Both the position numbers and the translations under genes were made by a program. The notes under the pieces are model-generated. The model did not search any database and was not told where the DNA came from. It saw only the letters and a list, made by a program, of their open reading frames with translations. Shown here one piece after another: positions 13,249-55,992 of a stretch of DNA of 64,000 nt. Source of the DNA: Candidatus Krumholzibacteriota bacterium (GTDB lineage Bacteria; Krumholzibacteriota; Krumholzibacteriia; Krumholzibacteriales; WJIX01); NCBI GenBank assembly GCA_034520215.1, contig JAXHNR010000001.1:796560-860559 (forward strand), in the 5' to 3' direction. Numbering within the stretch: position 1 is the first letter of the stretch; every line of letters begins with the position of its first letter.

Positions 13249-13653
13249 TTGACTGTTTTTACACATTTTGCCGCTGGAGCTCTAGTCGGATATTTCTCCC
13301 CTGGTGTATTCAGCGCGTCTATTGGCGGCCTGCTGAGTCACGTGTTGCTTGATGTAATACCTCATTATGATTTTGAAAGTCTGAGATTGGAGATATTCTT
13401 AGGTGTTGCTGTTGTGCTGACTCTGGTTTTTACGGGGAGTTGTTCGTTGGTTATCTGTCTTGGCGGTATTTTCGCGGTTATACCTGACCTTGAGAATCTT
13501 TTGTGGAAGACGGGTAAGTTAAGAGAAGATCAAAAGGTGTTCCCCGGACATGCCGGAATTATTTCTCACGGGAGAAAGACCGGAAGAAAAAGTATTTTGA
13601 TTCAGGTCATCTTCGTTATGGCTGTTGTTATTTTTTTGATATGGAGTGTCTGA
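13249..13653 (+). CDS. polytopic membrane protein with His/Asp motifs, uncharacterised
   Basis: A 134-aa protein with three or four hydrophobic segments. Polar residues lie next to the helices: SHVLLDVIPHYDF near 30-43, AVIPDLENLLWKTG near 77-90 and FPGHAGIISHGRK near 99-111. Conserved His and Asp at helix ends recall the YdjM/DUF457-type inner-membrane putative metal-dependent hydrolases, but this is only a resemblance. The TTG start has GGGAG about 9 bases upstream. Its TGA overlaps the ATG of the next gene (TGATG), so it is translationally coupled to the PorU-like peptidase. Confidence 0.6.
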   Translation: MTVFTHFAAGALVGYFSPGVFSASIGGLLSHVLLDVIPHYDFESLRLEIFLGVAVVLTLVFTGSCSLVICLGGIFAVIPDLENLLWKTGKLREDQKVFPGHAGIISHGRKTGRKSILIQVIFVMAVVIFLIWSV

Positions 13654-16600
13654 TGAAAAAGATCTTTATGATTATCTGGATGGCCGCGCTGATATTTCCT
13701 GTTATCGCGAATTGCGCGAAAGTCAATATTCTTGACTACGATATATCCGGTGTAACAGTAGAGGTGAAAATAGATACTCTGATCATCTCCCCCGCCGGAG
13801 ACGCGAGAGATGAAGAAGAAAGCAGAATCACGATACCCGGATTTGAAGAAACAAGGTATGAGGGGTTTCCGGTTCTTCCGGCTCGCAGGTATCTCTTCGA
13901 AGTAACTTCCAAGAAGGGTGTTGGAGTGAGAATCATCGAGAATAACAAGCGGACCCTGGATGGAGTCAAACCAATTATATTTGATGCCGGTGATTCCAAG
14001 AGCAAGAGATTAGTAAAAGACAGTTCCGGGGTAGCCGCGATTAATATAAGTGATTTTGTAACTATAGCCGGAGTGGGAGATTTCAGAAAGACACCAATTG
14101 CTCTTATTGATATCCGCCCTGTAATTTTCGATAAAGAGAATGAAAAACTTCTCTATTCTTCCAGGATCGTTTTCCGTCTGACATTTCCGAAGGCTCAAGT
14201 GTCCGGCAAAGAAGGCGTTTTGGATATGCCCCGGGACCGTTTTATTGCAAACGCGGAGCAGGCAAAACTATGGAGAAATAAATCACGGCCGGTTCAGAGC
14301 GCGGGGCCTTATTCTTTTGAGTTCAGCCTCGCTGATGAATGGGTAAAGATAAGAGTCGATGATCCCGGTATCTACAAGATAACCTACAGTGATTTGTACA
14401 ATTTTGGAGTCAATCCGTCTGATATCGATCCATCAGATATACGTTTATTCTCAAGCCCGGTCTATCCAACGACAAGACCATTTCAGCAGCCGGCTTCTAT
14501 AGATTCCGGCGGTAGTTTCGAGACAGATTATCATATGTCCGAACACGCTATAAAATTTCTGGGCAACTCATCTGACGGAACCTTTGATCCTGGTGAATCG
14601 GTGATTTTTTACGGTGTCGGAGTCGAGGGGTGGCGGGATTATCTGGATCCCGGGACTGATAGGGAGGATACATTTGATAATATCTATGAAACAAGGAATG
14701 TTTACTGGATGGCCTGGAGCAGAGATTTTGAAGGTACTGCGAAGAGAATGAAATCAAGGGATGTCTCACCCTCCTATGACGTTTCTCTTGAAACGCTTAA
14801 CACGTATGAACATAGATTGCATATCGAAGAGGATAATGAATACGATCCGGTTTTTTCCCCAGACAGATGGCTCTGGAAAAATCTCGCTCCCAACATATCG
14901 GGATCTTACACTGATTACTTTAACGTAAGTGATATAGCTGAATCAAATTGCAAGGTACGAACTATCGGGCTGATTCGTACTGAAGGAGGTACTGCTGATT
15001 GTTATTTGAATACAGAAAATGTAGGGGAGCTCGAGTGGATATATTCCTTTAATACCGACATACTGGTTGCCGAAGCCGCAACGTTAAACGAGGGAGAGAA
15101 CAGTTTTAAATATGATAAAGCTGATGATGGAATAGAGATGAATATTTACTGGTATGAAATATTTTTCGACCGGTACCTGATAGCCGATCCTTCGGGCAAT
15201 TTTCTCGATTTCTTTGCTCCCGAGACAAGCGGGTCCGCGAATTTTGTTTTAAGAGGTTTTCCAGAAGAGGAACGGTTCATCTTTGATGTCTCCGATTACC
15301 TCAACCCTGTTATTTTAACCGAAGCTGACAGCAGAGCCGACACTATAAGTTTTGATGACAGTTTCACACCCTCTTCTAACCACTATTTTGCCGTTTCTGA
15401 ATCGGGTCTCAGAAACGCAAGCATAGAATACGCAAGGAATATTCCCTCCCTCAGGGATGAGGCCGCCTCGCCCGCTATGTTAGTTATTTATAATGATCTT
15501 TTCAGTCAATCTGCCCGGCAGTTTGCCGCGTATAGAGCTGAGCATTTTCCGGAAACAGGCTCCGGATATGTTAAGGCCGTCGATATAGAAGATGTTTATA
15601 ATAATTTCTCCGGAGGGCTTAAAGATCCAATCGCCATACGTAATTATCTGAAGTTCCTCTATGACAATTATTCAGAAAACGGGGATCCGGTTATTGAATA
15701 TGTTTTTCTGATTGGTAAGGGTAATTATGATCCTAAGGATATTATGGGAAGGGGGGAAGATTTCATACCCTATTATTTCGACGGCAGCATGGAATTTGAC
15801 GATTACCTGGTAAAACTTGATGAAGGGGGCGATCTGCTGGTTGATCTCTCGATTGGAAGATTGCCTGTGATAAAGGAAAACAGCCCCTTTGTATTTTTGA
15901 ATAAACTATTCGGGTATGAAGCATTAGATAATTATGGTTCCTGGAAAAACAAAGTTGTATTTGTAGCCGATGACGAGATTTCAAGTAACAGTATCACTGA
16001 TACTGTTCATTTGAGCCACACGGAAGGGTTAAGCAAGAGTTTATCTGCCAGGCAGGATTATCTTGATATAACCGAAATCTATCTCCATGATTATCCGACT
16101 GTAAACTCCTTGAAGCCTGAAGCGACAGCTGATCTGATGAAGGAATGGAATGAAGGCGCTTTGATAGTTAATTATATTGGGCACGGATCTCCAGTACAGC
16201 TCGCGGATGAACTTGTAATGAGGAAGAATGACATCTATTCTCTGAAAAACGAAAATAGACTCCCTCTGTTTCTAGGATTTTCATGTTCTGTCGGGGACCT
16301 CGATCAGATTTTCACTAAAAGTCTGGCGCATGAGTTGGTTTTAGCCGAAGGCAGAGGGGCAATCGCGTCGGTTTCAGCAGTTACTTACAGTTACAGTACT
16401 CCGAACAGAGATCTCGATTCATACTTTCTGGATAATGTATTCCCCGACAGTATCCAGTCAGGAACCCAGCCTGTCGGCAGAGCGCTCCTTTTTGCCAAGA
16501 TGACTGATATCAGTGATGAATGGAATAACAGAAAATACACGTTGATTGGAGACCCTGCTATGAAATTGATCTTGCCGGAATTAATGGTTGAGCATGTAAT

Positions 16601-17585
16601 CGATGATATCGATACACTCTCCAGCGGATATATGTACAATTTGAAAGGGGCTGTTATCTCTGGTGGTGAGATATATTCCGGATTCAACGGAACTGCCGAT
16701 ATAATCGTCAGAGATGCCAAAAGGCAGTTCAACGCGCTGGGGATCGATTATGACCATTCAGGCTCTGTCTTGTTCAGAGGAACTGCTGACGTTTCTTCCG
16801 GAGAATTTAATTCTAATTTTGTTGTACCTTTGAGATGCCATTATGGAATAGGCGGCGAAATAAGCAGTTACGTAAGCTCCGGTAATTCCGACGGCGCGGG
16901 TATTTGCGATACGATAGTTGTCTTACAGGGGGATTCTGTAATGGAGAATGACGGCCCTCCGAGTATTGATATGTATTTTGAAAATAATGCGACCAAGGTC
17001 AAAAGCGGTTCAAAACTGGTAGTTGAAATAGAGGATGAAAACGGCATTGCCATAATTGGAACAGACCCGCAGAATTCGATCTTTCTCGAGTTCGATGAAA
17101 ATGGTTACCCGATATATGTAACTGATAATTTTCAGTACAATTACGGATCATACACAAGCGGCCTTGTGGAGTACTTTCTGCAGTCAGAGTTCGAACGCGG
17201 CAGTCATTCCGTTGTCGCGAAGGTTTTTGATAATATGGGAGTTATGTCGAGTGACACCCTTCAATTCGAAATTGTCGAAGAAGGACTTTACAGTATTACT
17301 GATATTTTCAATTTTCCGAATCCGTTCAGAGAAAACACAAATTTTGTTTTTCAATTGAGCGGCGGAGCTGAAATCAATTTAAAGGTGTTTACAGTTTCAG
17401 GTGTTGAGATATGGCGAAGGGAGCTTGTTTGTTCGGAGGGCTTTAACAGTATCAGCTGGGATGGAAGAGACCACTCGGGAAACAGGCTTGCCAATGGAAC
17501 CTATTTATATGTTCTCAATGCCGAATTTGACAATTCGTTAAACCGCAGTGAGACCGCGGAAGGAAAGGTGATATTAATGCGCTGA
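13653..17585 (+). CDS. PorU-like C25 family peptidase with C-terminal sorting domain (type IX secretion)
   Basis: A 1310-aa exported protein. Signal peptide at 1-22, then a beta-rich N-terminal half. A gingipain-type C25 domain carries the catalytic pair His844 in NYIGHGSP and Cys878 in FLGFSCSVGD. YTLIGDPAMKL follows, as in PorU-type proteins. The last 90 residues (NFPNPFRENT, SGVEIWRRE, WDGRDHSGNRLANGTYLYVL) are a FlgD-Ig/type IX sorting-like domain. PorU removes sorting domains at the cell surface and attaches cargo; the adjacent PorV-like gene supports this role. A secreted gingipain-like protease is the alternative. ATG 13653 has GGAG 6 bases upstream; ATG 13641 is less likely. Confidence 0.85.
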   Translation: MKKIFMIIWMAALIFPVIANCAKVNILDYDISGVTVEVKIDTLIISPAGDARDEEESRITIPGFEETRYEGFPVLPARRYLFEVTSKKGVGVRIIENNKRTLDGVKPIIFDAGDSKSKRLVKDSSGVAAINISDFVTIAGVGDFRKTPIALIDIRPVIFDKENEKLLYSSRIVFRLTFPKAQVSGKEGVLDMPRDRFIANAEQAKLWRNKSRPVQSAGPYSFEFSLADEWVKIRVDDPGIYKITYSDLYNFGVNPSDIDPSDIRLFSSPVYPTTRPFQQPASIDSGGSFETDYHMSEHAIKFLGNSSDGTFDPGESVIFYGVGVEGWRDYLDPGTDREDTFDNIYETRNVYWMAWSRDFEGTAKRMKSRDVSPSYDVSLETLNTYEHRLHIEEDNEYDPVFSPDRWLWKNLAPNISGSYTDYFNVSDIAESNCKVRTIGLIRTEGGTADCYLNTENVGELEWIYSFNTDILVAEAATLNEGENSFKYDKADDGIEMNIYWYEIFFDRYLIADPSGNFLDFFAPETSGSANFVLRGFPEEERFIFDVSDYLNPVILTEADSRADTISFDDSFTPSSNHYFAVSESGLRNASIEYARNIPSLRDEAASPAMLVIYNDLFSQSARQFAAYRAEHFPETGSGYVKAVDIEDVYNNFSGGLKDPIAIRNYLKFLYDNYSENGDPVIEYVFLIGKGNYDPKDIMGRGEDFIPYYFDGSMEFDDYLVKLDEGGDLLVDLSIGRLPVIKENSPFVFLNKLFGYEALDNYGSWKNKVVFVADDEISSNSITDTVHLSHTEGLSKSLSARQDYLDITEIYLHDYPTVNSLKPEATADLMKEWNEGALIVNYIGHGSPVQLADELVMRKNDIYSLKNENRLPLFLGFSCSVGDLDQIFTKSLAHELVLAEGRGAIASVSAVTYSYSTPNRDLDSYFLDNVFPDSIQSGTQPVGRALLFAKMTDISDEWNNRKYTLIGDPAMKLILPELMVEHVIDDIDTLSSGYMYNLKGAVISGGEIYSGFNGTADIIVRDAKRQFNALGIDYDHSGSVLFRGTADVSSGEFNSNFVVPLRCHYGIGGEISSYVSSGNSDGAGICDTIVVLQGDSVMENDGPPSIDMYFENNATKVKSGSKLVVEIEDENGIAIIGTDPQNSIFLEFDENGYPIYVTDNFQYNYGSYTSGLVEYFLQSEFERGSHSVVAKVFDNMGVMSSDTLQFEIVEEGLYSITDIFNFPNPFRENTNFVFQLSGGAEINLKVFTVSGVEIWRRELVCSEGFNSISWDGRDHSGNRLANGTYLYVLNAEFDNSLNRSETAEGKVILMR

Positions 17586-17706
17586 TCAACCAGCGACAGG
17601 TCTGCATCGATAGACAGAATCAGTACGGATCTTTATTACTAAAAGACTTGACCGCGTAAGGGCTGGATTATTATTTTAAGCAGGTATAAGAGAGAGGAAA
17701 TAAAGC

Positions 17707-18708
17707 ATGAAAAAAAGTATTATTATTCTGTTGTTTAGCTTCATTCTTGCGTTGAGTTTCGCGCAGGATTCTTCGGCTCAAGGTACAAGCGGCGCGTACA
17801 GCCTCAAAATTCCACCCGGAGCGAGAGCCAATGGTATGGGGCAGAGTAATGTCGCTTTAGTTGAAGATGCAACCAGTCTATGGTGGAATCCGGCTGGTAT
17901 GTCAATGGTTGAAGGTTCAGTTGTTGATCTGATGCATTCTCAGCTGGTACCTGGATTGGCTTCGGATGTTTTCTTTGAATATATAGGCGGAGTTCGTAAC
18001 CTGGGCGGAGGTATTGCTGTCGGTGCCGCGATTCAGTATCTTACATATGGAGAATGGCAGGCGATGTCGGATGATCCTAACGCGCCGCCTCTGGGAACCG
18101 CGAGTTCATTCGAGGTCTCTCCCGTTATAGGCGGATCTATCAAGTTAATGGATAATCTCAGCATTGGTATGAACTTCAAGTTTGTATATATCAGCCTTGC
18201 TCCAAAATGGGCCACGGTGGAAGGAAAAGAGGGAAAAGGGCATTCTGTGGCAGTGGACATGGGAGCAATCTGGAGAGTCCCTGAGCTTGATTTCTTCGGT
18301 CGACGAATAAAAAGGTTAAATCTCGGAATGTGCCTGTCGAATTTTGGGCCTTCAGTTAGCTATGTGGACAGTGATCAGGCGGCCCCTCTTCCTCGAACAG
18401 TAAGGGCCGGATTTTCCTATACCCCTTATCTGGATGAAGTCGTGGAGCTTAGATTTGTTGGAGACATAGAAAGGGAACTTATTATTGTCGATGTCTCCAA
18501 TATATATCACGCGGGTTCCGAATTTGTCTATTCAGATCTATTCGCGGTGCGAGCCGGATATATATATGACGAAGACGGTGATATAAAGGCCCCGACGTAC
18601 GGTCTGGGTTTTATCTTCAATGACCGTATCAGAGTAGACTACGCGAGCGTACCTCAAAGCGTTGAGCTGGGAAGGGTTCACCGCTGGTCGATTGGAGTCT
18701 CGTTTTAA
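17707..18708 (+). CDS. PorV/PorQ family outer-membrane protein
   Basis: A 333-aa barrel of the FadL-like PorV family. Signal peptide at 1-24 (cleaved near AQG), then GARANGMGQSNVALVEDATSLWWNPAGM in blocks typical of PorV/PorQ, which in FadL proteins is the AxxNPAG region. Alternating strands run to the final aromatic residue (WSIGVSF). In type IX secretion PorV shuttles cargo from the translocon to PorU, so its position 121 bases after the PorU-like gene is strong context. AGAGAGG precedes the ATG. A weak TTGACC-N17-TTATTT promoter lies in the gap. Confidence 0.87.
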   Translation: MKKSIIILLFSFILALSFAQDSSAQGTSGAYSLKIPPGARANGMGQSNVALVEDATSLWWNPAGMSMVEGSVVDLMHSQLVPGLASDVFFEYIGGVRNLGGGIAVGAAIQYLTYGEWQAMSDDPNAPPLGTASSFEVSPVIGGSIKLMDNLSIGMNFKFVYISLAPKWATVEGKEGKGHSVAVDMGAIWRVPELDFFGRRIKRLNLGMCLSNFGPSVSYVDSDQAAPLPRTVRAGFSYTPYLDEVVELRFVGDIERELIIVDVSNIYHAGSEFVYSDLFAVRAGYIYDEDGDIKAPTYGLGFIFNDRIRVDYASVPQSVELGRVHRWSIGVSF

Positions 18709-18734
18709 TTTCCCCTGGAGAGGTAGTAATCTGA

Positions 18735-21700
18735 TTGAATCTATTCTTTAGAAAAAAACTGTATATAATATTATTTCTGCTCTTTCTTCCGCTTCCTCTG
18801 CTTGGACTGGATAACGACAGCGGATATATTCCTTTGCTGAAGAAAAGGGTGTCGGGGAATTACGCTGTTACGGGAAGAGTAAAGGGTGTAAAGAGACCCG
18901 CGCGGAGGAGAAAGAAATTCAATTTCGACAGGCCGTCGGGAAGGGGATTCTCGAAAGAACCCTTATCCAGGCCTCTGCTTGGTTCAATCCCCCCAGTTTC
19001 GGGTACATGGCGCGTGGCTGTGATACGGGTAGGATTTAAGACCGACAGGGATGATGACCTGTCGAGCATAGAGACCGGGGGTGAATTTATGCTTCAGCCC
19101 GATTCAACTGTAATTATTGATCCTCCTCCGCATAATAAAGCTTATTTTAATTCTCACATGGAGGGACTTAAGAATTATTATCATTTTCAATCGGGCGGCA
19201 GATTGGATATTACATGGGAAATATTTCCCGTTGAGGAGGATTCCAGCTATAAACTGACAGATATTGCCGATTACGGCCCGGGATATTACGGCGGCTGGAC
19301 AACAGAAAAGCTGGTAGAATTCTTAAGAGATGCTCTTACGGTAACAGAAGCTGACAATGATATAGATTTCACTGAATTTGACGCTATAGTTCTAGCTCAC
19401 GCTGGGGCTGACCTGCAGAGTGATGTCAACAATGACTCTCCAAACGATATACCCTCTTTTTTCGCGAGACTGGGAGAAGATGATTATATTACGGTTGAAG
19501 GCGGCGCTAAAGTTATTACCGATTGTTCAGTGATCCCTGAAACCGGTCTGCAGGATGACTACTACGGAGGTATTGCCGCGGTTCTTGCTCATGAATTCGG
19601 TCATCAGCTCGGGCTTCCCGATCTATACAATACTTACACAGGATCTCCTTCGGTAGGCGTCTGGGACAATATGGACAGCGGCGGTCAGATGAACGCCGTA
19701 ATCGCAGATCCTTCAAATGGTGAGATTTATGTTGTCTCAGGTGTGATTCCAGGGGGCTTAAGCGCCTGGTCGCGGTACTACATGGGTTGGATAGACGAGG
19801 TTGACACTCTTGAAGCATTCAACAGCTCAATCGATTTGAGAGCTGTTGAAAAATCCCCTTCCGAGATTATCAGAGTAGATATTTCAAATGATGAATACTA
19901 TCTTATCGAAAATCGCTGTTGTGAGATTAATGGGGAAATGACTTACTTCGTGCCGGATACTCTGACATCTGTTATCGTGGGGTTGGGGCACATCATTAAT
20001 GGCGATTCACTGAAATTAACCAATGAATATGACGTTCTTCTTCCCACCGCGTCAGATACAATTTCAACGGAGACGGGCCCCGGGCTCTTGATATGGCATA
20101 TCGACGAAAGACTGATAGCTGAGAGATGGAATGAGAATATTATCAATACGGGAGATATATTCGGCGTAAGACTTATGGAGGCTAACGAATTCTTTGACCT
20201 AGGGGACCCGACTTCATGGTACGGGCTTGGATGGTACGATGACGCTTATTACGAGGGAAATAATTCTTTTTTTTCCGATCCATTCGCCTGGAGCAACCTC
20301 AATGTCGCGTCCGGTGTTAGCGTGGAGAATATATCCGGGAGAGACACTCTTATGACATTCGGAGCCGGCGTGAGGGCACTTAGAACGAGTATTACTATAG
20401 CCGCCGATACGGCGCTGTCGGAAATGGGGATCGTCACACTCGAAAAGCCCCGGGATGTTCTTGTTGTTGATGTACTTGGAAGGGGATGGTTGGCGGACAG
20501 CCCGGCACCCGTTTTTTCACTCGGCGAAGCCCCCGTTACACCGGTCGCATTTGCTGACAGCTTCTCTTTAGGAGAAAGCGCCGTTGTGATAGCTGATAAA
20601 ACAGGTGTGATTAACGCTTTTTCAACTCTGAGCTGGAATCAATTTTCCGGCTGGCCTGTCGAGACGGAAGGAATAAGCACACATCCGGTAGTTCTGAAAA
20701 AGGATGAGGGTGTATATATCGCCGTGGCTGATACGACAGGGCGCGTATTAATTTTCGATTCCACGGGAAATTTAAGCCGAAGCAGGCAGCTCTCGGGCCG
20801 AGCCGGGAATATAGCGAACATGGCAGTCTGTGAAGATCAGAATCATTACGCGGACAAACTGATCTATTTAAGTGGTGATTTAAGCGGCGCAGCTGACGTT
20901 AATCTCAACTGGTGGGATTTTGAACTGGATAGTGTGGATTCTCTGTCCCTTCCGCTCAGGGCGGAAGAAACGGCGGGGGACGCGGTATTACTCGCCGGAG
21001 ACATTCTGCCCGACAGGAGCGGAATAGAAGTTTATGTTGTTATAATGTCACGGGGGCAGATTATCCTTTGTTCAAAGGAAGGGATTGTATCGAGCAGGGA
21101 AATAGGCAAGGGTATCGAGAGTTTGCCTCTTATTATCGATATCAACGGTGATTCTTCACTCGATTTAGTTTGTACTGAGGGGGAGGTTATCTACGCGTCG
21201 GGGCCTTCAGGCGCCGACCTTACAGGGTGGCCTCGTAATATCAACGAAATGCATATTACAACCTTCAGGGAACATATTGCCTCACCCCTTTCTGCCGCTT
21301 CAACAGGGGATGAGTCTTATATTATAGCCGTAACTGAGAACGGCCTTTTGTATACTCTGGACCACAAGGGGGAGTTCGCGGGGGGAGGGTATCCGGAAAG
21401 GATAGCCGCTTCAATTACTCAACCGGTTGAATTAACGGCGGGTGAAGACAATGAAGGGCTGATAACATATATTGATCTACTCGAGAACGGAGACGGAACT
21501 TATTATTCGCGAAGGCCCGAAGAGACAGCCGTGGAATCGAGGGAAGGTCCTTTTTCCTCTGAAGACATTTCTCTTTCCTGGTCCGCGGTCTTTGGCAATC
21601 GCCGGAGGACCTCGTTTGCAGTTTCAGGGGAGCGCTGGTCTGAACCCGCTGAAGATTGGGAGAATATGGCAAATTTGATTATCTACCCTAATCCCTCCAG

Positions 21701-21941
21701 CGGCAAACTGGTCGGTTTTCACTTCTCCGCTCCGTCGGGCGCCGAGGCGAGACTTCAGGTTTTCAATATCCTGGGGGAGATTATTCTTGAGAAGACCAAG
21801 ATATGTATCGGAGGAGAAGAACACGGGTTTTCCGTCACGGGGATGTCTGATAAAGCGGCGGGAGTGTATATAGGAAGAGTTGTTATTAAGTCTGAAGGTA
21901 AAAGCGCGGAGATTATTGATAAATTCGCTATAGTTAAATAG
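18735..21941 (+). CDS. M6 family metalloprotease with type IX sorting-like C-terminus
   Basis: A 1068-aa secreted protease. Signal peptide near 1-24; a propeptide-like basic region (RRRKKFNFDRPSGRG); the M6 domain with zinc motif HEFGHQLGLPD (His286, Glu287, His290). The central part (about 545-950) has repeated strands resembling a beta-propeller (LIIDINGDSSLDLVC, IAVADTTGRVLIFDSTG). The end (IYPNPSSGKLVG, LQVFNILGEII, GVYIGRVVIKS) is a type A sorting domain as in type IX cargo. The TTG start has GGAGAGG about 10 bases upstream. Its place next to PorU/PorV homologues suggests it is their substrate. Confidence 0.88.
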   Translation: MNLFFRKKLYIILFLLFLPLPLLGLDNDSGYIPLLKKRVSGNYAVTGRVKGVKRPARRRKKFNFDRPSGRGFSKEPLSRPLLGSIPPVSGTWRVAVIRVGFKTDRDDDLSSIETGGEFMLQPDSTVIIDPPPHNKAYFNSHMEGLKNYYHFQSGGRLDITWEIFPVEEDSSYKLTDIADYGPGYYGGWTTEKLVEFLRDALTVTEADNDIDFTEFDAIVLAHAGADLQSDVNNDSPNDIPSFFARLGEDDYITVEGGAKVITDCSVIPETGLQDDYYGGIAAVLAHEFGHQLGLPDLYNTYTGSPSVGVWDNMDSGGQMNAVIADPSNGEIYVVSGVIPGGLSAWSRYYMGWIDEVDTLEAFNSSIDLRAVEKSPSEIIRVDISNDEYYLIENRCCEINGEMTYFVPDTLTSVIVGLGHIINGDSLKLTNEYDVLLPTASDTISTETGPGLLIWHIDERLIAERWNENIINTGDIFGVRLMEANEFFDLGDPTSWYGLGWYDDAYYEGNNSFFSDPFAWSNLNVASGVSVENISGRDTLMTFGAGVRALRTSITIAADTALSEMGIVTLEKPRDVLVVDVLGRGWLADSPAPVFSLGEAPVTPVAFADSFSLGESAVVIADKTGVINAFSTLSWNQFSGWPVETEGISTHPVVLKKDEGVYIAVADTTGRVLIFDSTGNLSRSRQLSGRAGNIANMAVCEDQNHYADKLIYLSGDLSGAADVNLNWWDFELDSVDSLSLPLRAEETAGDAVLLAGDILPDRSGIEVYVVIMSRGQIILCSKEGIVSSREIGKGIESLPLIIDINGDSSLDLVCTEGEVIYASGPSGADLTGWPRNINEMHITTFREHIASPLSAASTGDESYIIAVTENGLLYTLDHKGEFAGGGYPERIAASITQPVELTAGEDNEGLITYIDLLENGDGTYYSRRPEETAVESREGPFSSEDISLSWSAVFGNRRRTSFAVSGERWSEPAEDWENMANLIIYPNPSSGKLVGFHFSAPSGAEARLQVFNILGEIILEKTKICIGGEEHGFSVTGMSDKAAGVYIGRVVIKSEGKSAEIIDKFAIVK

Positions 21942-21961: not shown

Positions 21962-22981
21962 TTGAGAGGAAAACTGCTTAAATTCTGCGTACTTTCTTCA
22001 GTGTTATTTTTGCTGTTAATTCCGGTTTCTGAGGGGAAAGCCAAAGGACTGCATAACACAGGGAATCTTTCCAGTCGCCTGACGCTTAATTCTAACACTC
22101 AGAATGATGAAATAGAGAATAATATCGCTTCAGCATCTGTTTTTAATACAAGCGGTTTGCCCGTGGATCTTGAAACTCTTAAAGGGTCTGAGACTATAAA
22201 GCTTCGCGGAGAACGCCTAAAAAGACCTGCATATTCATTTGGAGATCTAATGATTAGAGATAACTCTTTAGACGGTTCTTTTTCCGCCGCAGATAAAAAG
22301 AGAATAGCAGTTTCTATGGTTTCATCCGCTCTTCTCCCCGGACTCGGAGAATTGTATCTGTATCTTGATTCCGGCTCGGACGATCTATCCTTACTTACAC
22401 GAGCGATAGGGTTTATGGCCCTCGATGCCTATTTATGGTATGGGTATAAAGCAAATTATGACGAGGGCAAGGATATAAAACGGGAGTATGAAGAGTACGG
22501 AGACGCCCACTGGAGCGTGGATTCATTTCTGGTTTATCATCCGTGGTGCAGAGATCAGGGTGAAGATCTATGTCCTACCTGGGAGTATTACAATGAGAAT
22601 GCTAAAGATTCTCGCTATTATTTCTTTTATACATCCAAAGAGGATGACCGTGAGGAGTACTATGAGAATATGGGTAAGTATGATGCCTTTCTCTACGGGT
22701 GGGATGACTGGAACGGCGAGTATGAAGATTTAGGGGGAGTTCCCAACTACTGGACACCACACAGGACTCATTTTGTCTATCTGAGGGATGAAAGCAACAA
22801 GTTTCTCCAGAGGGCGGACAACCATATCATGGGATTAATAGCATCCCGGGTTGTTTCAGTTATTCACGCCGGCTGGGTTGCCTACAGAGAGGGAAAGAAC
22901 ACCGGAAATTCAGAGGGATGGTCGCTTAAATTGGAAAACAACGCCGTTAGATCCAGATTAAGTTTAAATTACAGATTTTAG
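21962..22981 (+). CDS. envelope protein, paralogue of the next gene, DUF5683-like
   Basis: A 339-aa protein with a signal peptide (1-26), a low-complexity Ser/Asn-rich stretch, then SALLPGLGELYLYLD and FMALDAYLWYGYKANYDEG, a Gly-rich loop and membrane-type helix. A tyrosine- and acid-rich segment follows (EEYGDAHW, YYENMGKYDAF), then a C-terminal helix-strand end (RLSLNYRF). The LLPGLGE block, the YxxM/GxY region and the RVVSVIHAGW segment recur in the next gene, so the two are paralogues in tandem. No enzyme motif is visible. TTG start with GGGGAG upstream. The function is unknown; outer-membrane association is inferred from the final aromatic residue. Confidence 0.55.
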   Translation: MRGKLLKFCVLSSVLFLLLIPVSEGKAKGLHNTGNLSSRLTLNSNTQNDEIENNIASASVFNTSGLPVDLETLKGSETIKLRGERLKRPAYSFGDLMIRDNSLDGSFSAADKKRIAVSMVSSALLPGLGELYLYLDSGSDDLSLLTRAIGFMALDAYLWYGYKANYDEGKDIKREYEEYGDAHWSVDSFLVYHPWCRDQGEDLCPTWEYYNENAKDSRYYFFYTSKEDDREEYYENMGKYDAFLYGWDDWNGEYEDLGGVPNYWTPHRTHFVYLRDESNKFLQRADNHIMGLIASRVVSVIHAGWVAYREGKNTGNSEGWSLKLENNAVRSRLSLNYRF

Positions 22982-22992
22982 GGGGTACCGCT

Positions 22993-23868
22993 TTGCGCAG
23001 GATTCTGATATTCACACTTTTATTCCTTCTTCCCGGTCAACTGACCGCGGGTTCAATCACTTTCCCCTTGAATGGTGAAAGCAAAGCAGATGGTGATAAT
23101 GAAGAAAATATACTTTTCCCCTCTGAATCTTCACTTTATTCAGGGCGAGCGACAGGTGAAATTCCCCTTGATATTTCATCCTCCCCCTCGGCCGGCTATT
23201 CAGCATCTATGCTGAAAGAAGAGGAAGCCTCGGATACGGGGAGCAGTCAAATCAGCGATATTTCTGCTTCCGGCGCGGCTGCCAGGAGTTTTCTTCTTCC
23301 TGGCCTGGGACAGAGGAAAATGGGGCATTCTATCAGATCAAAGATATATTTCTTTCTGGAAGGAGCCGCCTGGATAGGACTTGGAGCATTTACGTGGCAG
23401 AGTATCGCACGCAAGGATGCCTATGAGGATTATGCCGTTGCGTTTGCCGGCGTAGACGGCACCGGCCATTCCGACAGTTATTATGAAACTATAGGCAATT
23501 ATATGAGTAACGACGGAATAGGCGGATATAATGAAGATGTTAGGCGTGAAGCGAGAGATTACTACAGCGATCCGGATGCCCGTGACAGTTATTATCAGGA
23601 GAACAGTCTAACGGGGGATGACGGCTGGAGATGGGAGACGGAGCGTGATTATGACCGCTACAATTCTCTTCGCAAAGGGAGTCATTCAGCGGAAAGAAGA
23701 GCAATATACACATTGTTTTATATGCTCGGAATAAGAGTAATCAGCGCGGTGGACGCCGGCAGATTGGCCTCGGGCGGTGATTCAGATAATGAATCCGCGT
23801 CTGGTATTTCTGTCAGTATGGAGCAGAGCAAAAGAGGTGTTTCTCTGCTTTTAAACACCTCATTCTAA
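22993..23868 (+). CDS. envelope protein, paralogue of the preceding gene, DUF5683-like
   Basis: A 291-aa protein with signal peptide (1-19). Shared with the previous gene: SFLLPGLGQRKMGHS, a hydrophobic segment (GAAWIGLGAFTWQS), an acidic Tyr-rich stretch with YYETIGNYM and YYSDPDARDSYY, and RVISAVDAGRLASGG near the end. It finishes with VSLLLNTSF, another strand ending in Phe. The LLPGLGQ motif is frequent in DUF5683-type proteins of FCB bacteria, which are of unknown function. The TTG start has AGGGGG about 7 bases upstream; only 11 bases separate it from its paralogue. Confidence 0.55.
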   Translation: MRRILIFTLLFLLPGQLTAGSITFPLNGESKADGDNEENILFPSESSLYSGRATGEIPLDISSSPSAGYSASMLKEEEASDTGSSQISDISASGAAARSFLLPGLGQRKMGHSIRSKIYFFLEGAAWIGLGAFTWQSIARKDAYEDYAVAFAGVDGTGHSDSYYETIGNYMSNDGIGGYNEDVRREARDYYSDPDARDSYYQENSLTGDDGWRWETERDYDRYNSLRKGSHSAERRAIYTLFYMLGIRVISAVDAGRLASGGDSDNESASGISVSMEQSKRGVSLLLNTSF

Positions 23869-24091: not shown

Positions 24092-25066
24092 ATGACGAGA
24101 AGATTATTTTTCGCTGCTGAATTTGTCCTTTTTTCCCTCTTTTTGCCGGTTGACGGATATACCAATGATATTGCTGCTGCTGCCGAAGACAGCACAGCGG
24201 CAAAGATGATAATGCCGGCCGACTCTACCGATGCCGTTATTGAATTGGAGGGTTCCGGGAACTACCTTGGTAAAGGTGAATTGAGAGAACCTCTGGGAAT
24301 ATTTGCCGGACCCAGGGGCGATGTCTATGTCGCGGACGCCATGGCGGGCAAGGTGTATAAGTATGATCAAAGTGGTAATTCAGTTGAGTTTGAGCTTCCC
24401 TCCTTTTCCGGCTCTGTTTATCCAATAGATCTGTCGGGGTCTGCCGCGTTCGTTTATATCCTGGACTATTCAAGTAACAAAATACTCCGTTACGATTACA
24501 GAGGGGCCTATCTGGACATACTGATAGACTTCGCTGAATATAAGAATCTAAAGCCCGTTTCACTGTCGGTAGGAACCGGCGGAAGATTTCTGATGACAGA
24601 TATAGAAAGTCACCACTTTACAATCCTCAATCCTCTGCTGGATATAGAACTTCAGATTGGAGCCTACGGATGGGATAAGGGCTATTTTGATGAACCCATG
24701 AAAGCGTCCCTGCTTCCCGGGGGACGAATCGCGGTTGCCGATTCAGGAAACAGGAGAATACAAATTTTTTCCTCTTCGGGAAGATTCCTTATGCTTCTCG
24801 GGTCAAGTGAAGAGTATGAATTCTGTTATCCGAGATCAGTCTGCGGCGACTCCGAGGGTAATATATTTGTAGCTGACACGGAGTGTGGTGAAGTCTTCGT
24901 TTTCTCGCCTTCGGGAAGGTTTATTATGAGCCTCGATTCGTACTGCGGTAATGATATTGCCCCTTCGGCTCTTTCAGTTAGTTTCGAGGGCAAATTATTT
25001 GTAGCCGACACACAATCATCCTCCGTTATTATCTACAGAATAGTTTATCCGGATTCTCGGCCATGA
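24092..25066 (+). CDS. exported NHL-type beta-propeller protein
   Basis: A 324-aa protein with a signal peptide (1-22) and about five to six NHL-like repeats. They are seen as GPRGDVYVADAMAGKVYKYD, SGSAAFVYILDYSSNKILRYD, LLPGGRIAVADSGNRRIQIF, DSEGNIFVADTECGEVFVF and SFEGKLFVADTQSSSVIIY. Such propellers act as scaffolds for protein or ligand binding; no enzyme site is evident. Its stop overlaps the next ATG in ATGA, so it is translationally coupled to the large barrel-like protein. A role as a periplasmic partner of that protein is an inference from this coupling. Confidence 0.75.
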   Translation: MTRRLFFAAEFVLFSLFLPVDGYTNDIAAAAEDSTAAKMIMPADSTDAVIELEGSGNYLGKGELREPLGIFAGPRGDVYVADAMAGKVYKYDQSGNSVEFELPSFSGSVYPIDLSGSAAFVYILDYSSNKILRYDYRGAYLDILIDFAEYKNLKPVSLSVGTGGRFLMTDIESHHFTILNPLLDIELQIGAYGWDKGYFDEPMKASLLPGGRIAVADSGNRRIQIFSSSGRFLMLLGSSEEYEFCYPRSVCGDSEGNIFVADTECGEVFVFSPSGRFIMSLDSYCGNDIAPSALSVSFEGKLFVADTQSSSVIIYRIVYPDSRP

Positions 25067-28000
25067 AGTATTTTCGAAACGCCTTTCTTTGTTTTCTGAT
25101 TTTTCAATTTATACGGGGTATTAATATTCAATCCGCCGAGGTGCCAGCCCCGGCAAAATCGGCGCGGCAAATAATTCATAAAAAAAGATATATTCTTAAA
25201 GAAGGCCAGACAAGCCTTCTTCTGGGGGTTACTTTTATTATATCCGGGACGGAAGAGATATCAATTGACGGCCGGCCGCTTAAGGAAAAAGATTACAGAA
25301 TCAATACCCTGAGGGGAACTCTTGTTCTGGTTGAACCTGCCCGGAAGGGACAGGTCCTTAAGATAGAATATTCAAGATACCCCTTTTCCTTTCCGCCTCT
25401 AATGGCCAGAAGGTTTCCATCCGTGGAAGAAAGAAAAACCGGCTATAATATTCCTGGGTTTGCCGCGGAAAGTGTCTCTGGAAATTCTAAGAGCAACCCA
25501 TACCGTTTTAATGTTTCAGGCAGTAAGTCGGTAGGGTTTTCTGTAGGATCCAGAAAGGGACTTGGAATTGATCAGAGTTTGAATATCACCCTTTCAGGCA
25601 AGCTGGCGCGTGATCTCGAAGTAAACGCCTTTCTCTCTGATGACAACTTGCCGGTACAGGCTGAAGGAAACACTGAAGAGCTCAAACGGCTGGACAAGAT
25701 CTCGATTAATATAAAGAGCAGGCATACCGAGGTCGACCTCGCGGATATTAATACAGCTATGGTGTGGTCTGAATTTTCCTCGTTTAGAAGAGAACTGAGA
25801 GGGGGAAACGTAGAGGTAAATGCCCGTGGGCAAAGATTCGTCATTGGAGGGGGGATAACCAAGGGAAGATTCGAAACAGTTGAGATAACAGGCTCGGAGG
25901 GAGTCCAGGGTCCCTATGAACTTTTGCCCGCGAGAAGATTTAACGGCGTGATAATAATTCCGGGTTCTGAATCTGTTTACCTGAACGGCTCAGCAATGAA
26001 AAGGGGAAGTGAAAATGATTATATAATTGATTATACAAGAGGCTCGGTAACTTTTTCCGAGAGAGTTCCCATCACGGATGATTCTGAAATTGTCGTTGAA
26101 TATCAGGTTGGCGAAAGAAACTATGAGAGAACTACAATTAACGCCGGATGGGCTTCATCTTATTTTTCTGACGCTCTCAAGTTGAGAGGTTTGTTTTTCA
26201 GGGAAACTGATGACAGCAAGAGGCCTATTGGAGGTGAATTTACCGATGAAGAAAAAGATTCACTTAAAAAGGCGGGCGATGACCCGGATAAGGCCTTCGC
26301 GTCAGGAATTGAGGAGATAGAAGAAGGGGGAAGCGGATATACTTACAACGAAGCGGATTCGTCAACTCCGGGGCATTATACTTTCGTTGAGTCAGGAGCT
26401 CATTACAGACTGGATTTCTATGAAGTCGCCTCTGGCGGGGATTATGAAACAGATGGATTTTCGAGCAGAGGAAAGCTTAAATATAAATATGTAGGCAGGG
26501 GCAATGGAGATTACAGAATAGGCCGGCCGCTGGCTCTGCCGGAGAAAAAGAATGTGGCGGCATTATCCGCGGAAGCCGGCGGTGAACATTATTTCTTTAA
26601 TGCCGAGGGAGACCTCAGCAGTTATGACAGGAACACTATGTCTGATATCGGAGACGGTGATAATGTTGGATACGCGTTTGATATCAAAGGGGGTCTTAGA
26701 GACCTTGATATTATGTCGTCCCGTTTGGCGTTCAGCGGGGAATACTCTTCCCTTAGTGAAAGATTCAAATCGCCGGACCGCGCCAGAAAACCCTACTTCT
26801 ACCGTAACTGGAACCTTCAGGACCAACCGCTGTCCGGCAGGGAAAATATCTCCGGTCTTAATCTTCAGCTCAAAAGGGACCGGTTGTGGCAGATTGAAGG
26901 AAAGTACAAAAGGCTTGAAAGAACAAACGGACTTTCCGCTGATATGGCCGAATCTTCAGGACACATAGGCGATATAGGCAGGAGAGGTATAAGATTCGAA
27001 TGGTTCAAGACGGAAACGGGAAGTGACAGAAAGAGAGATTTTGCCCTTGCTGAGGGTAAATTCGCGTTATGGAAGCTTATTCCCGGTATCTTTTTCGACA
27101 CCGAACGATACAGCAGCCTGTCAGACGCGAAGCCGGATACGGGCAGGTATTACTACAGGAATATTATTTCACTTTCTTCGAGGGATACGGGTGATTTCTC
27201 AGGGAAGCTGTCTTTTTCACATAGAGCTACTGATAATTTGAGAAATTCAGATCGATTCTGGTTCAGGGCGAGAGAAAATGACGAGGTAAGGTTTTCAGGG
27301 TCTTATTCGGGAGGGCGGAAAGTTGTCGATTTTTTTATAAGTCATCGGAAAAAAAAGGATATTCAATACGGCAGCTCCGGTGTCCATGATCTGGCAAGAG
27401 TGAGATATCGCGATTCATGGAGCAGGGTGGGATTAACATCCGATCTCGGATACAGAATTCAATCGGGGGAGGAGAGGAGACGTCAGAGAGCGGTTATATT
27501 CGTTGGTGAAAATGAAGGAGATTATGATGAAGAGGGAAGAGAGGTCGGCCAGAAAAGAGGGGATTATATGGTGGTATACATCCCGGGCGGAGAGAAACAG
27601 GTTGTTAGAGAAGTAAATTTAACATGGCGGTTGAGTTTCGGAAAGGGAATAAGGGGGATCGGGCTTGGAAAGGGTAAAGATTCAGGATGGTTCGGCTTGA
27701 TAAAGAGGAATGTTTCCATGGACAATTTCTTTTCCGTGACTGAAAAATCAAAGACAGACCAGCTGATGAGACTTTATACGCTGGATCCGGAAATTCTTCA
27801 GCGCGATGATGTAACACTCTTCGGTTCCAATAAATTACGTCAGGAATGGAATTTCCTGAAAGATGTAAAGAAATACAACCTGGGATTTATTATGACCAGG
27901 GAAGATGAAGAAGATAACAGAACTGAGGGCGCCCTGGCTTCCCGTTATATGAATGAATATAGACTCCGCGCCGCCGCAATACCAAATTCTTCCTTGAGTA

Positions 28001-28464
28001 TATCGCTTGAAGCAGCTAAGGGTGCTAATCGCAGCCGTTCAGGTAATCCCGCTGCTCAGAACTACAGTGTAGAGTCGACTCTCTTCTCGAATAAAATAGA
28101 ATACCGTTATGGACCTAATTCAAGAGTTTCTATGGAATTCGCTTACGAAAAAAGGGAAGATGAGTTTTCGTTATCCAGGCAGAAGTCTTATTCAGCCAGG
28201 CCGGCTGTGAATATGTCTTTAGGTGTGAAAATAAATATTTCAGCTTTCCTGAAGATGACATATACCGGGGTTGAGGAGGATAACGGGCAACCCCTTTTCT
28301 TTCTTGAAGACGGGATGAGACAGGATTGGAATATTAACGGAAGGTACCGTTTTGGCAAGAATATATCGATGGGCATAAACTACACGGGAAGAAGAGAAAG
28401 AGATTATACGGATGAGATGAGGATTGTACATGTTTTTAAGGTGGAAAGCCGCGCTTCTTTCTAG
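25063..28464 (+). CDS. large putative outer-membrane barrel protein, SprA-like
   Basis: A 1133-aa exported protein. After a signal peptide (1-25) a module at about 45-108 (ISGTEEISIDGRPLKEKDYR, then RINTLRGTL) is repeated at about 300-355 (IPGSESVYLNGSAMKRGS, then NDYIIDYTRGSVTF, IVVEYQVG). Between them lies a segment with LARDLEVNAFLSDDNLPVQ and RRELRGGNVEV, a pattern found in the N-terminal parts of SprA/Sov, the type IX translocon. The last 700 residues are dense amphipathic strands ending in Phe. At less than half the length of SprA it may be a related, smaller barrel. It overlaps the propeller upstream and the Omp85 gene downstream. Confidence 0.6.
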   Translation: MKYFRNAFLCFLIFQFIRGINIQSAEVPAPAKSARQIIHKKRYILKEGQTSLLLGVTFIISGTEEISIDGRPLKEKDYRINTLRGTLVLVEPARKGQVLKIEYSRYPFSFPPLMARRFPSVEERKTGYNIPGFAAESVSGNSKSNPYRFNVSGSKSVGFSVGSRKGLGIDQSLNITLSGKLARDLEVNAFLSDDNLPVQAEGNTEELKRLDKISINIKSRHTEVDLADINTAMVWSEFSSFRRELRGGNVEVNARGQRFVIGGGITKGRFETVEITGSEGVQGPYELLPARRFNGVIIIPGSESVYLNGSAMKRGSENDYIIDYTRGSVTFSERVPITDDSEIVVEYQVGERNYERTTINAGWASSYFSDALKLRGLFFRETDDSKRPIGGEFTDEEKDSLKKAGDDPDKAFASGIEEIEEGGSGYTYNEADSSTPGHYTFVESGAHYRLDFYEVASGGDYETDGFSSRGKLKYKYVGRGNGDYRIGRPLALPEKKNVAALSAEAGGEHYFFNAEGDLSSYDRNTMSDIGDGDNVGYAFDIKGGLRDLDIMSSRLAFSGEYSSLSERFKSPDRARKPYFYRNWNLQDQPLSGRENISGLNLQLKRDRLWQIEGKYKRLERTNGLSADMAESSGHIGDIGRRGIRFEWFKTETGSDRKRDFALAEGKFALWKLIPGIFFDTERYSSLSDAKPDTGRYYYRNIISLSSRDTGDFSGKLSFSHRATDNLRNSDRFWFRARENDEVRFSGSYSGGRKVVDFFISHRKKKDIQYGSSGVHDLARVRYRDSWSRVGLTSDLGYRIQSGEERRRQRAVIFVGENEGDYDEEGREVGQKRGDYMVVYIPGGEKQVVREVNLTWRLSFGKGIRGIGLGKGKDSGWFGLIKRNVSMDNFFSVTEKSKTDQLMRLYTLDPEILQRDDVTLFGSNKLRQEWNFLKDVKKYNLGFIMTREDEEDNRTEGALASRYMNEYRLRAAAIPNSSLSISLEAAKGANRSRSGNPAAQNYSVESTLFSNKIEYRYGPNSRVSMEFAYEKREDEFSLSRQKSYSARPAVNMSLGVKINISAFLKMTYTGVEEDNGQPLFFLEDGMRQDWNINGRYRFGKNISMGINYTGRRERDYTDEMRIVHVFKVESRASF

Positions 28465-30118
28465 TTTCCTTCTTAGCGCGGTATTTATTACCGATGCCGG
28501 CGCTGAGGTTATTAAGAGGGTAACGCGGAGAGGATTTAATATTATTGGAAGCGAAGAGTCGATAGCTCCTTCATTTCTGAAGGAGGGGACCGAATATAGC
28601 GATTCTGTTGTTGAGTTAGAGATAAACCGTCTCGATTCACTCTATTTTCTGCATGGACGTCTGGCGGCACGAATATCTGTTGATACACTCAGGAAAAATT
28701 CCGGTATTGATATTGAACTTGAAGTAAAAGAAGGAGAATTAACCCGCGTAGATGAAATAAATATATCCGGGGACAGATCATTGTTAAGCGGCAGAAAAGG
28801 GGGGCTTGATAGACTCAATAAAGGCGATCCGTTCTATCCGGATGTTATACAAAAGATGATGAGTAACACCATGTATTTGTATAATAATTCCGGCTTTCCC
28901 TTCGCTCAGGTCTGGATGACACTTTTCCGGCTGGATGAAGAGAAGAATGAAGTTGATATATCTTTCTCGATTGTAAGCGGCCGTAAAGCGGTGATATCAG
29001 AAGTCGTATTCGAGGGTTTGACCAGAACAGACAGTTCTTTAGTCCGGATGGCTTCCCGTATTGATATACCGAATGTATTCAGTGAAGAGATGATAAGAAG
29101 GGCGAAAAGGAATCTTGAAAGGAGCGGTCTTTTTAAATCTGTCGGCGAGGGGAAGATTAAGAAGAACAGGGAAGACGTTTTTATACTCGTCATGCCTGTA
29201 GAGGAAAAGAAGAACAGTAGTTTTTTCCAGGGAGCGCTCGGGTTTTCACGCAAAGACAATAGCGGTGACTATAAGATGAACGGCCGGCTTGATATTCAGC
29301 TCGATAATATAGCGGGAACGGGAAGAAAAGCGGGTTTATCCTGGTTCAACGACGGAATAAAATATTCGGAAACCCAGATAAGATATAATGAGCCGTTCTT
29401 GTTTTCCACACCTGCCGCTGTATCATTTTCAATAAAACAGGCGGTTGATGATTCGCTCTACAACATGCATACGGGATTGTTCGAATTAAAACTGCCGTAC
29501 GGGCCCTGGGGAGTTAACAGTGTGATTGGAATTTCCGCGGATAGAAATATAATTCCATCGGGGGGTAATTTGAAGAGGAGCGTCAGGCAGAGTCTCAGGC
29601 TTGGAATGGAAAAGACCTCGGGGGCGATCTTCAGGTTCGACGGGCGGATTGAAGGGGGAAGAAAGAAGAATTACCCGAGGGATGGGGCGGCCAAAATAGA
29701 TTGGCAGTTTATCTATTCAATTGATCTCTCATTGACTATACCGACGATTGAAAACCAGAGTTTATTCTCCGGCGTGGTTTCCAAGGGGGTTTTTTCCCGC
29801 GGTGATATTCATGTAGCGGAGATGTTCCCGATGGGCGGCGCGAGAACACTCAGGGGTTTCCGCGAAAATCAGTTCAGAGGTGAAAGGGTAAGTTATGTAA
29901 ATTTAGAATACAGGCTGGGAGGGGAAAGCCGCGTATTCATTTTTGACGATATCGGAAGTTATTTCAGAGATCCGGGCGGCTGGAAATTGAAAAACGGATT
30001 CGGCTTCGGTTTAAGAACATCTTCTGATATAGGAACTGTCGAATTGAGTTTCGGTCTCGCCGGAAAACTCTCGATGGATGAAGCCAGAATCCATGTTTCC
30101 TTACTCGAAACTTTCTGA
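28430..30118 (+). CDS. Omp85/BamA-TamA family outer-membrane assembly protein
   Basis: A 562-aa protein: signal peptide (1-25), at least two POTRA domains (about 30-100 and 175-265, seen as VVFEGLTRTDSSLVRMASRI and RAKRNLERSGLFKSVG) and a 16-strand-type Omp85 barrel. The barrel has GGARTLRGFRENQFRG (the RGF latch motif of lid loop L6) and VNLEYRL. It is shorter than BamA (about 800 aa), so it resembles TamA or a specialised Omp85. ATG 28430 has TGAGG 7 bases upstream and lies inside the end of the large barrel gene, suggesting that it inserts that protein. Confidence 0.87.
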   Translation: MFLRWKAALLSSFLLSAVFITDAGAEVIKRVTRRGFNIIGSEESIAPSFLKEGTEYSDSVVELEINRLDSLYFLHGRLAARISVDTLRKNSGIDIELEVKEGELTRVDEINISGDRSLLSGRKGGLDRLNKGDPFYPDVIQKMMSNTMYLYNNSGFPFAQVWMTLFRLDEEKNEVDISFSIVSGRKAVISEVVFEGLTRTDSSLVRMASRIDIPNVFSEEMIRRAKRNLERSGLFKSVGEGKIKKNREDVFILVMPVEEKKNSSFFQGALGFSRKDNSGDYKMNGRLDIQLDNIAGTGRKAGLSWFNDGIKYSETQIRYNEPFLFSTPAAVSFSIKQAVDDSLYNMHTGLFELKLPYGPWGVNSVIGISADRNIIPSGGNLKRSVRQSLRLGMEKTSGAIFRFDGRIEGGRKKNYPRDGAAKIDWQFIYSIDLSLTIPTIENQSLFSGVVSKGVFSRGDIHVAEMFPMGGARTLRGFRENQFRGERVSYVNLEYRLGGESRVFIFDDIGSYFRDPGGWKLKNGFGFGLRTSSDIGTVELSFGLAGKLSMDEARIHVSLLETF

Positions 30119-55956: not shown

Positions 55957-55992
55957 AACGGGAAATGCGTTTTGTGTTTAAGGTCAAAATCT

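What the first reader, a model, noticed from the sequence alone, without database searches (positions are those of the whole stretch)
13653..21941. Type IX secretion-like cluster with its own cargo
A PorU-like C25 peptidase with a sorting-type C-terminus, a PorV-like barrel and an M6 protease with a type A sorting domain are adjacent. A second M6 protease with the same kind of tail lies at 55993. The PorU-like protein ends in a FlgD-Ig-like domain, which differs from typical Bacteroidota PorU. This may be an early-branching form of the system.
Basis: partly seen in the sequence, partly recalled or inferred. Interest (0 to 1): 0.6.

Follow-up and report, generated by a model that had tools for sequence, protein, structure and literature searches.

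The report
Type 9 secretion core without motor

Summary
The window encodes a full-length PorU sortase (catalytic His and Cys invariant in relatives), a PorV-family barrel and an M6 protease with a type A sorting tail; a second tailed M6 lies at 55972. The genome belongs to the Krumholzibacteriota. It also carries a SprA/Sov translocon and at least 33 proteins with the sorting tail, so this is a genuine type 9 secretion core. The claim that PorU's FlgD-Ig-like tail is unusual fails: Bacteroidota PorU proteins end the same way. The new point is what is missing. SprA and PorU occur in 39 of 39 relatives, but motor and ring proteins (GldL, GldM, GldN, true GldK) are not found, while the same model finds GldM in seven of seven Bacteroidota. 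The same split (SprA, no GldM) holds in Balneolota, Ignavibacteria, KSB1, Zixibacteria, Cloacimonadota and Latescibacterota. PorU and SprA trees agree and place motor-bearing Bacteroidota as one inner branch. The genome has only two ExbB/TolQ-type motors: Tol-Pal, and an Oar-type ExbB-ExbD-ExbD-TonB unit in a conserved operon with a PorV-family carrier and a tailed protein. That unit is a testable candidate power source, not a shown one.

The parts
13249..13653 (+). 134-aa membrane protein overlapping the start of PorU; fused in frame to the PorU N-terminus in 11 related loci
13641..17585 (+). PorU-type C25 sortase (1314 aa), predicted catalytic pair H848/C882
17307..17582 (+). C-terminal sorting-type domain of PorU (residues 1223-1314; also scored as FlgD_ig)
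17707..18708 (+). PorV-family outer-membrane carrier barrel (333 aa)
18735..21941 (+). M6 metalloprotease with sorting tail (1068 aa), motif HEFGHQLGLPD; conserved neighbour of PorU-PorV
21681..21896 (+). type A sorting domain of the first M6 protease
21962..22981 (+). 339-aa protein of unknown function, conserved in the cluster
22993..23868 (+). 291-aa protein (weak DUF5683), conserved in the cluster
24092..25066 (+). NHL-repeat propeller protein, conserved in the cluster
25063..28464 (+). 1133-aa predicted giant beta-barrel (about 39 strands) holding a 56-residue domain shared with SprA
   Evidence: weak SprA-model matches in its orthologues
28424..30118 (+). POTRA/Omp85 (BamA-like) protein at the end of the cluster; link to the system unproven
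55972..58836 (+). second M6 metalloprotease with sorting tail (954 aa), motif HELGHMLGLPD
58591..58827 (+). type A sorting domain of the second M6 protease

Best explanation
The cluster encodes the sortase and carrier half of a real type 9-type secretion system in a Krumholzibacteriota bacterium. Sec-exported proteins with the C-terminal sorting domain enter the SprA barrel (encoded elsewhere in the genome), dock on PorV, leave through SprA's side gate and are cut by PorU. The M6 protease is a conserved co-encoded client or accessory. The system has no recognisable GldL/GldM motor and no GldN/true GldK ring. Shown: the genes, and the absences by profile search. Inferred: every step of transport. 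The motor and ring look like a later addition on the Bacteroidota line, so this lineage either uses another proton-driven motor or releases substrate without one.
For: PorU, PorV and tails. SprA is one 2089-aa open frame, 498 bits against a cut-off of 200, matching the F. johnsoniae SprA structures at 2e-26. SprA and PorU are found in 39 of 39 class genomes. GldM: 0 of 39 with a real match, and 0 of 80 phylum genomes over the cut-off with a second model. GldL 0 of 4 and GldN 0 of 12 Krumholzibacteriota tested; GldK matches there only at the level of generic FGE-type proteins. Positive controls: GldM over its cut-off in 7 of 7 Bacteroidota. Balneolota has SprA at 1528 bits and Ignavibacteria at 1090, yet no GldM, so divergence alone is a poor excuse. 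PorU and SprA trees agree.
Against: Absence rests on profile searches, and a motor too divergent to recognise cannot be excluded. GldL and GldN were also missed in one Flavobacteriales MAG that has GldM. No secretion has been measured; the organism is uncultured. PorW/SprE, PorP, PorT, PorE-G, PorZ and PorX/Y were not searched.
Confidence: 0.75

Rival explanations
1. An Oar-type Ton motor replaces GldLM: ExbB, two ExbD and TonB, encoded beside a PorV-family carrier and a tailed protein, pull or release carrier-substrate complexes from SprA, perhaps through the adjacent TonB-dependent barrel.
For: The own genome has only two ExbB/TolQ-type loci: Tol-Pal, and this unit at C2:782.7-792.0 kb. The order TonB-dependent receptor - tailed protein - PorV-family - GWxTD - ExbB - ExbD - ExbD - TonB recurs wherever the contig allows in nearly all Krumholzibacteriota loci examined, and a rearranged version occurs in a Cloacimonadota genome. 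GldLM shares features with ExbBD/TolQR motors (PMC8986121). In Myxococcus an Oar-type receptor (CarboxypepD_reg, plug, barrel) with ExbB1, ExbD1, ExbD2 and TonB1 supports secretion of PopC (PMC6434023).
Against: The Ton unit may simply energise import by its own receptor, with the tailed protein as surface partner. It is not adjacent to SprA or PorU. In Ignavibacteria and Eisenbacteria the receptor-tail-PorV trio lacks an adjacent ExbB. No TonB-box-like motif was found in PorU, PorV or the PorV-like protein by a crude pattern, but that pattern also missed the receptor itself, so it says nothing.
Confidence: 0.2
2. A GldLM/KN motor is present but too divergent for sequence profiles.
For: GldL and GldN models missed one Flavobacteriales MAG; periplasmic parts may evolve fast.
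Against: Two independent GldM models are negative, one of them across 80 genomes; SprA is still recognised at 1528 and 1090 bits in lineages with no GldM; no MotA/ExbB-type protein is left over in the own genome.
Confidence: 0.15
3. SprA, PorU and PorV serve without any dedicated motor: substrate release is driven by folding outside the cell and by PorU cleavage.
For: Substrate loading onto SprA-PorV needs no energy in vitro (PMC10994853); no motor found.
Against: In F. [quoted passage not shown]
Confidence: 0.25
4. Decayed or repurposed relic: the genes remain but secrete little.
For: Motor missing; no experimental data.
Against: SprA and PorU kept in 39 of 39 genomes, catalytic residues invariant, 33 tailed proteins, cluster order kept.
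Confidence: 0.05

Closest known systems
Bacteroidota type IX secretion system (F. johnsoniae, P. gingivalis)
   Same: SprA/Sov translocon, PorU sortase with its own sorting-type tail, PorV-family carrier, many cargo proteins with a type A tail
   Different: No GldL, GldM, GldN or true GldK detected; PorU-PorV sits in a conserved cluster with an M6 protease and a predicted giant barrel
Incomplete type IX gene sets in 'Incertae sedis' Bacteroidetes (PMC7323717)
   Same: Sov, PorU, PorV and others reported present while PorK, PorL, PorM and PorN are not in the list
   Different: That report covers Bacteroidetes only and, in the passages read, does not treat a motor-less core as a system; here it spans a whole class and several other phyla
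Myxococcus Oar-Ton secretion of PopC (PMC6434023)
   Same: The operon elsewhere in this genome has the same parts: Oar-type receptor, ExbB, two ExbD, TonB
   Different: Here a type 9 carrier and a tailed protein are part of the operon; a role in secretion is not shown
NCBI family of T9SS-dependent M6-like inactivated metalloprotease (NF052323)
   Same: The window M6 matches it at 217 bits
   Different: Below the cut-off of 600, and the HExxH motif is intact here

Membership tests
Type IX secretion system | SprA/Sov translocon | tested here: met
   TIGR04189 498 bits against 200; 39 of 39 class genomes; SprA structures at 2e-26
Type IX secretion system | PorU sortase with catalytic His/Cys | tested here: met
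   NF033707 578.8 bits against 420; H848 and C882 invariant
Type IX secretion system | PorV/PorQ-family carrier | tested here: met
   NF033709 189.5 bits against 90; PorV equivalog cut-off not reached
Type IX secretion system | Several cargo proteins with the C-terminal sorting domain | tested here: met
   33 at E <= 1e-3, 25 over the cut-off
Type IX secretion system | GldL/PorL and GldM/PorM motor | tested here: not met
   GldM no real match in 39 and 0 of 80 over cut-off; GldL none in the four Krumholzibacteriota tested; GldM found in 7 of 7 Bacteroidota
Type IX secretion system | GldK/PorK and GldN/PorN ring or track | tested here: not met
   GldN 0 of 12 Krumholzibacteriota; GldK matches at most about 100 bits against 350, as in generic FGE-type proteins also hit in control genomes
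Type IX secretion system | PorW/SprE, PorP, PorT, PorE, PorF, PorG, PorZ, PorX/Y | not tested
Type IX secretion system | Tail-dependent secretion and tail cleavage in cells | not testable with these tools
   uncultured organism
PorU as in Bacteroidota | Ends in a sorting-type domain like Bacteroidota PorU | tested here: met
   Cargo-tail model hits PorU tails of Bacteroidota at 1e-11 to 2e-18 and the window PorU at 1e-14
Oar-type Ton unit as motor of this system | Oar-type receptor, ExbB, two ExbD and TonB linked to type 9 parts | tested here: met
Oar-type Ton unit as motor of this system | Needed for secretion of tailed proteins | not testable with these tools
   needs gene removals in a cultured relative

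The most novel reading that the evidence does not exclude
Type 9 secretion is older than gliding and older than its known motor. In most phyla around the Bacteroidota the SprA-PorU-PorV machine works without GldKLMN, and in Krumholzibacteriota and Cloacimonadota an Oar-type ExbB-ExbD-ExbD-TonB motor, encoded with a type 9 carrier and a tailed protein, supplies the energy.
Probability: 0.2. Interest if true: 0.85.

Novelty: new variant of a known kind. Interest (0 to 1): 0.62.

Why it matters
Current models say the motor is needed to pull carrier and cargo out of SprA (PMC10994853), and a 2025 paper infers that type 9 secretion first arose as part of Bacteroidota gliding (PMC12635249). A wide, motor-less distribution with Bacteroidota as one inner branch of both the PorU and SprA trees speaks against that origin. 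It also makes the energy question directly testable in cultured lineages such as Gracilimonas that have SprA but no detected GldLM.

Tried and rejected
GldL-like hits at model positions 3-37 in two near-identical Balneolota genomes: the neighbouring genes are unrelated, no gldK, M or N, so chance. GldM_1st hit at E 0.001 in the own genome: 54 residues inside a 1201-aa frame, not seen in congeners, so chance. GldK hits in this class: generic FGE-type proteins, far below the cut-off and also found in Bacillus and Caulobacter. Tailed 859-aa protein as PorZ: the match covers the tail only, no PDB sequence match, a low-confidence model (pLDDT 61) with no meaningful fold match. L127, named Gemmatimonadales, appears to be the same genome as G095 inside this class (same contig and coordinates), so it is not counted as a separate phylum; likewise, by matching sizes and coordinates, L077=G036, L079=G033, L100=G029, L124=G030. 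L128 and L130 proved not to be PorU, so no PorU claim is made for Eisenbacteria.

Full report
What is there. The three genes named are real, contiguous and on the + strand. PorU (13641-17585) matches the NCBI sortase model over its full length at 578.8 bits (cut-off 420) and the P. gingivalis PorU structure. In 21 relatives the His of NYxGHG (H848) and the Cys of FSC (C882) are invariant. PorV (17707-18708) is a PorV/PorQ-family protein at 189.5 bits (cut-off 90), but below the PorV-equivalog cut-off. The M6 protease (18735-21941) and the second one (55972-58836) keep HExxH and carry tails over the TIGR04183 cut-off. A tail model built from 20 cargo proteins of the same genome hits exactly these ORFs (both M6 proteases and PorU) in the window and nothing in shuffled controls.

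The PorU tail. It is not. The sortase model runs to position 1093 of 1095 in this protein, the P. gingivalis protein aligns through the same region, and the cargo-tail model hits PorU of Flavobacteriales, Bacteroidales, Persicobacter and Balneolota as well.

Who it is. The window is G000:C1:796560-860559 of a 2.6-Mb, 97% complete genome. Named records with the closest PorU are two loosely named MAGs at about 70%, then many labelled Candidatus Krumholzibacteriota or Krumholzibacteriia at about 40-44%. The kinship labels of the genome search put several of the latter in the same order (matching loci).

The rest of the system. Thirty-three tails at E <= 1e-3, 25 over the cut-off. SprA lies at about C2:663.5-669.7 kb, one open frame of 2089 aa, 498 bits against 200, recognisable against the F. 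johnsoniae SprA structures. All 39 genomes searched in the class have SprA, 37 over the cut-off, and all 39 have a PorU-model match, 32 over the cut-off.

The missing motor. GldM: no real match in 39 class genomes, and a second model, GldM_1st, passes its cut-off in none of 80 phylum genomes. GldL: none in the four Krumholzibacteriota tested. GldN: none in 12. GldK: only generic FGE-type matches. In the mixed panel the same GldM model exceeds its cut-off in all seven Bacteroidota, so the search works. Six of those seven also give GldL and GldN; one Flavobacteriales MAG does not, which is a limit on those two models. Outside Bacteroidota the split repeats: SprA over the cut-off in Balneolota (1528 bits), Ignavibacteria (1090), KSB1 (790), Zixibacteria (658), Cloacimonadota (521), Eisenbacteria (467), Latescibacterota (444) and Chitinivibrionia (437), and no real GldM match in any of them. 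Since SprA in Balneolota keeps about 60% of the score it has in Bacteroidota, a GldM of equal age should have been seen there; this is my inference. The two Balneolota genomes are near-identical and count as one lineage.

Trees. PorU (30 rows) and SprA (16 rows) give the same nested order: Krumholzibacteriota outside, then Zixibacteria and relatives, KSB1, Ignavibacteria, Balneolota, Bacteroidota. Bacteroidota are one clade with SH-aLRT 99 and 100. The roots are weak: a long C25 paralogue for PorU, and Krumholzibacteriota taken as outgroup for SprA. What the trees do show without a root is that the motor-bearing Bacteroidota sampled are one side of a branch and that the other phyla do not come from inside them. 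The simplest reading is that the motor and ring were added on the Bacteroidota line; repeated loss is the alternative. This bears on the published inference that type 9 secretion first evolved within Bacteroidota gliding (PMC12635249).

Surroundings. dnaE, a 254-aa protein, accA, a 134-aa membrane protein, PorU, PorV, M6, 339 aa, 291 aa, NHL and 1133 aa keep this order in many Krumholzibacteriota loci; PorU, PorV and M6 hits are also found together in Ignavibacteria and Balneolota loci. The 134-aa protein is fused in frame to the PorU N-terminus in 11 related loci, which suggests a functional link. The 1133-aa protein is predicted as a very large beta-barrel of about 39 strands (pLDDT 74, pTM 0.59). 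Its four best structural matches are all SprA, but with TM-scores near 0.25. Sequence profiles show a shared 56-residue domain only (95.8%). I call it SprA-like in size and one domain, not a proven SprA paralogue.

A candidate power source. The own genome has two MotA/ExbB-type loci. One is Tol-Pal. The other, at C2:782.7-792.0 kb, reads: TonB-dependent receptor with CarboxypepD_reg, plug and barrel domains; tailed 859-aa protein; PorV-family protein (177 bits, cut-off 90); ExbB; two ExbD; TonB. In relatives a GWxTD protein sits between the PorV-family gene and ExbB. The order recurs across nearly all Krumholzibacteriota loci examined, and a rearranged version occurs in a Cloacimonadota genome. 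The Myxococcus Oar system has the same parts and supports secretion of PopC (PMC6434023), and GldLM shares features with this motor class (PMC8986121). Ordinary import by the receptor explains the operon equally well or better, so I give the power-source reading 0.2.

Mechanism, step by step. Sec export and tail recognition: inferred from families. Passage through SprA with PorV as carrier: inferred from F. johnsoniae (PMC10994853). Tail cleavage by PorU: inferred from conserved catalytic residues. Energy: open.

Known or new. Type 9 genes outside Bacteroidota have been suggested (PMC11285876), and a list without PorKLMN exists for 'Incertae sedis' Bacteroidetes (PMC7323717). I found no paper in the held library on type 9 secretion in Krumholzibacteriota, nor one treating the motor-less core as a system; the library is partial and the search was by words.

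Noticed in passing
L157/L158 (G000:C2:650000-686000): sprA is divergent from an lptF-lptG pair and followed by an M28-family protein (possibly a glutaminyl cyclase, from motif memory only). LptF-type genes flank sprA in Balneolota and Ignavibacteria too.
   Followed up: partly
L082, L088, L089, L096, L099, L109, L110, L112, L122, L123, L127: The 134-aa membrane protein is fused to the PorU N-terminus; in the three printed examples its last hydrophobic stretch ends in an AxA-like site before the PorU part.
   Followed up: partly
L184:6150-6938 and L184:14134-14961: Two nearly identical short tailed proteins lie about 8 kb apart in the own genome.
   Followed up: no
G000:C1:221064-222254 and G000:C2:892080-893201: Two further large C25-type proteins (1378- and 1673-aa frames), each with likely counterparts in many relatives.
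   Followed up: no
L190:7689-9200; L157:8542-10251; L177:18211-19500: GWxTD-domain proteins sit both beside sprA and in the Ton/PorV-like operon.
   Followed up: no
G030:C867:10527-12722: A PorU-like frame with one internal TGA in a relative, perhaps a broken copy.
   Followed up: no
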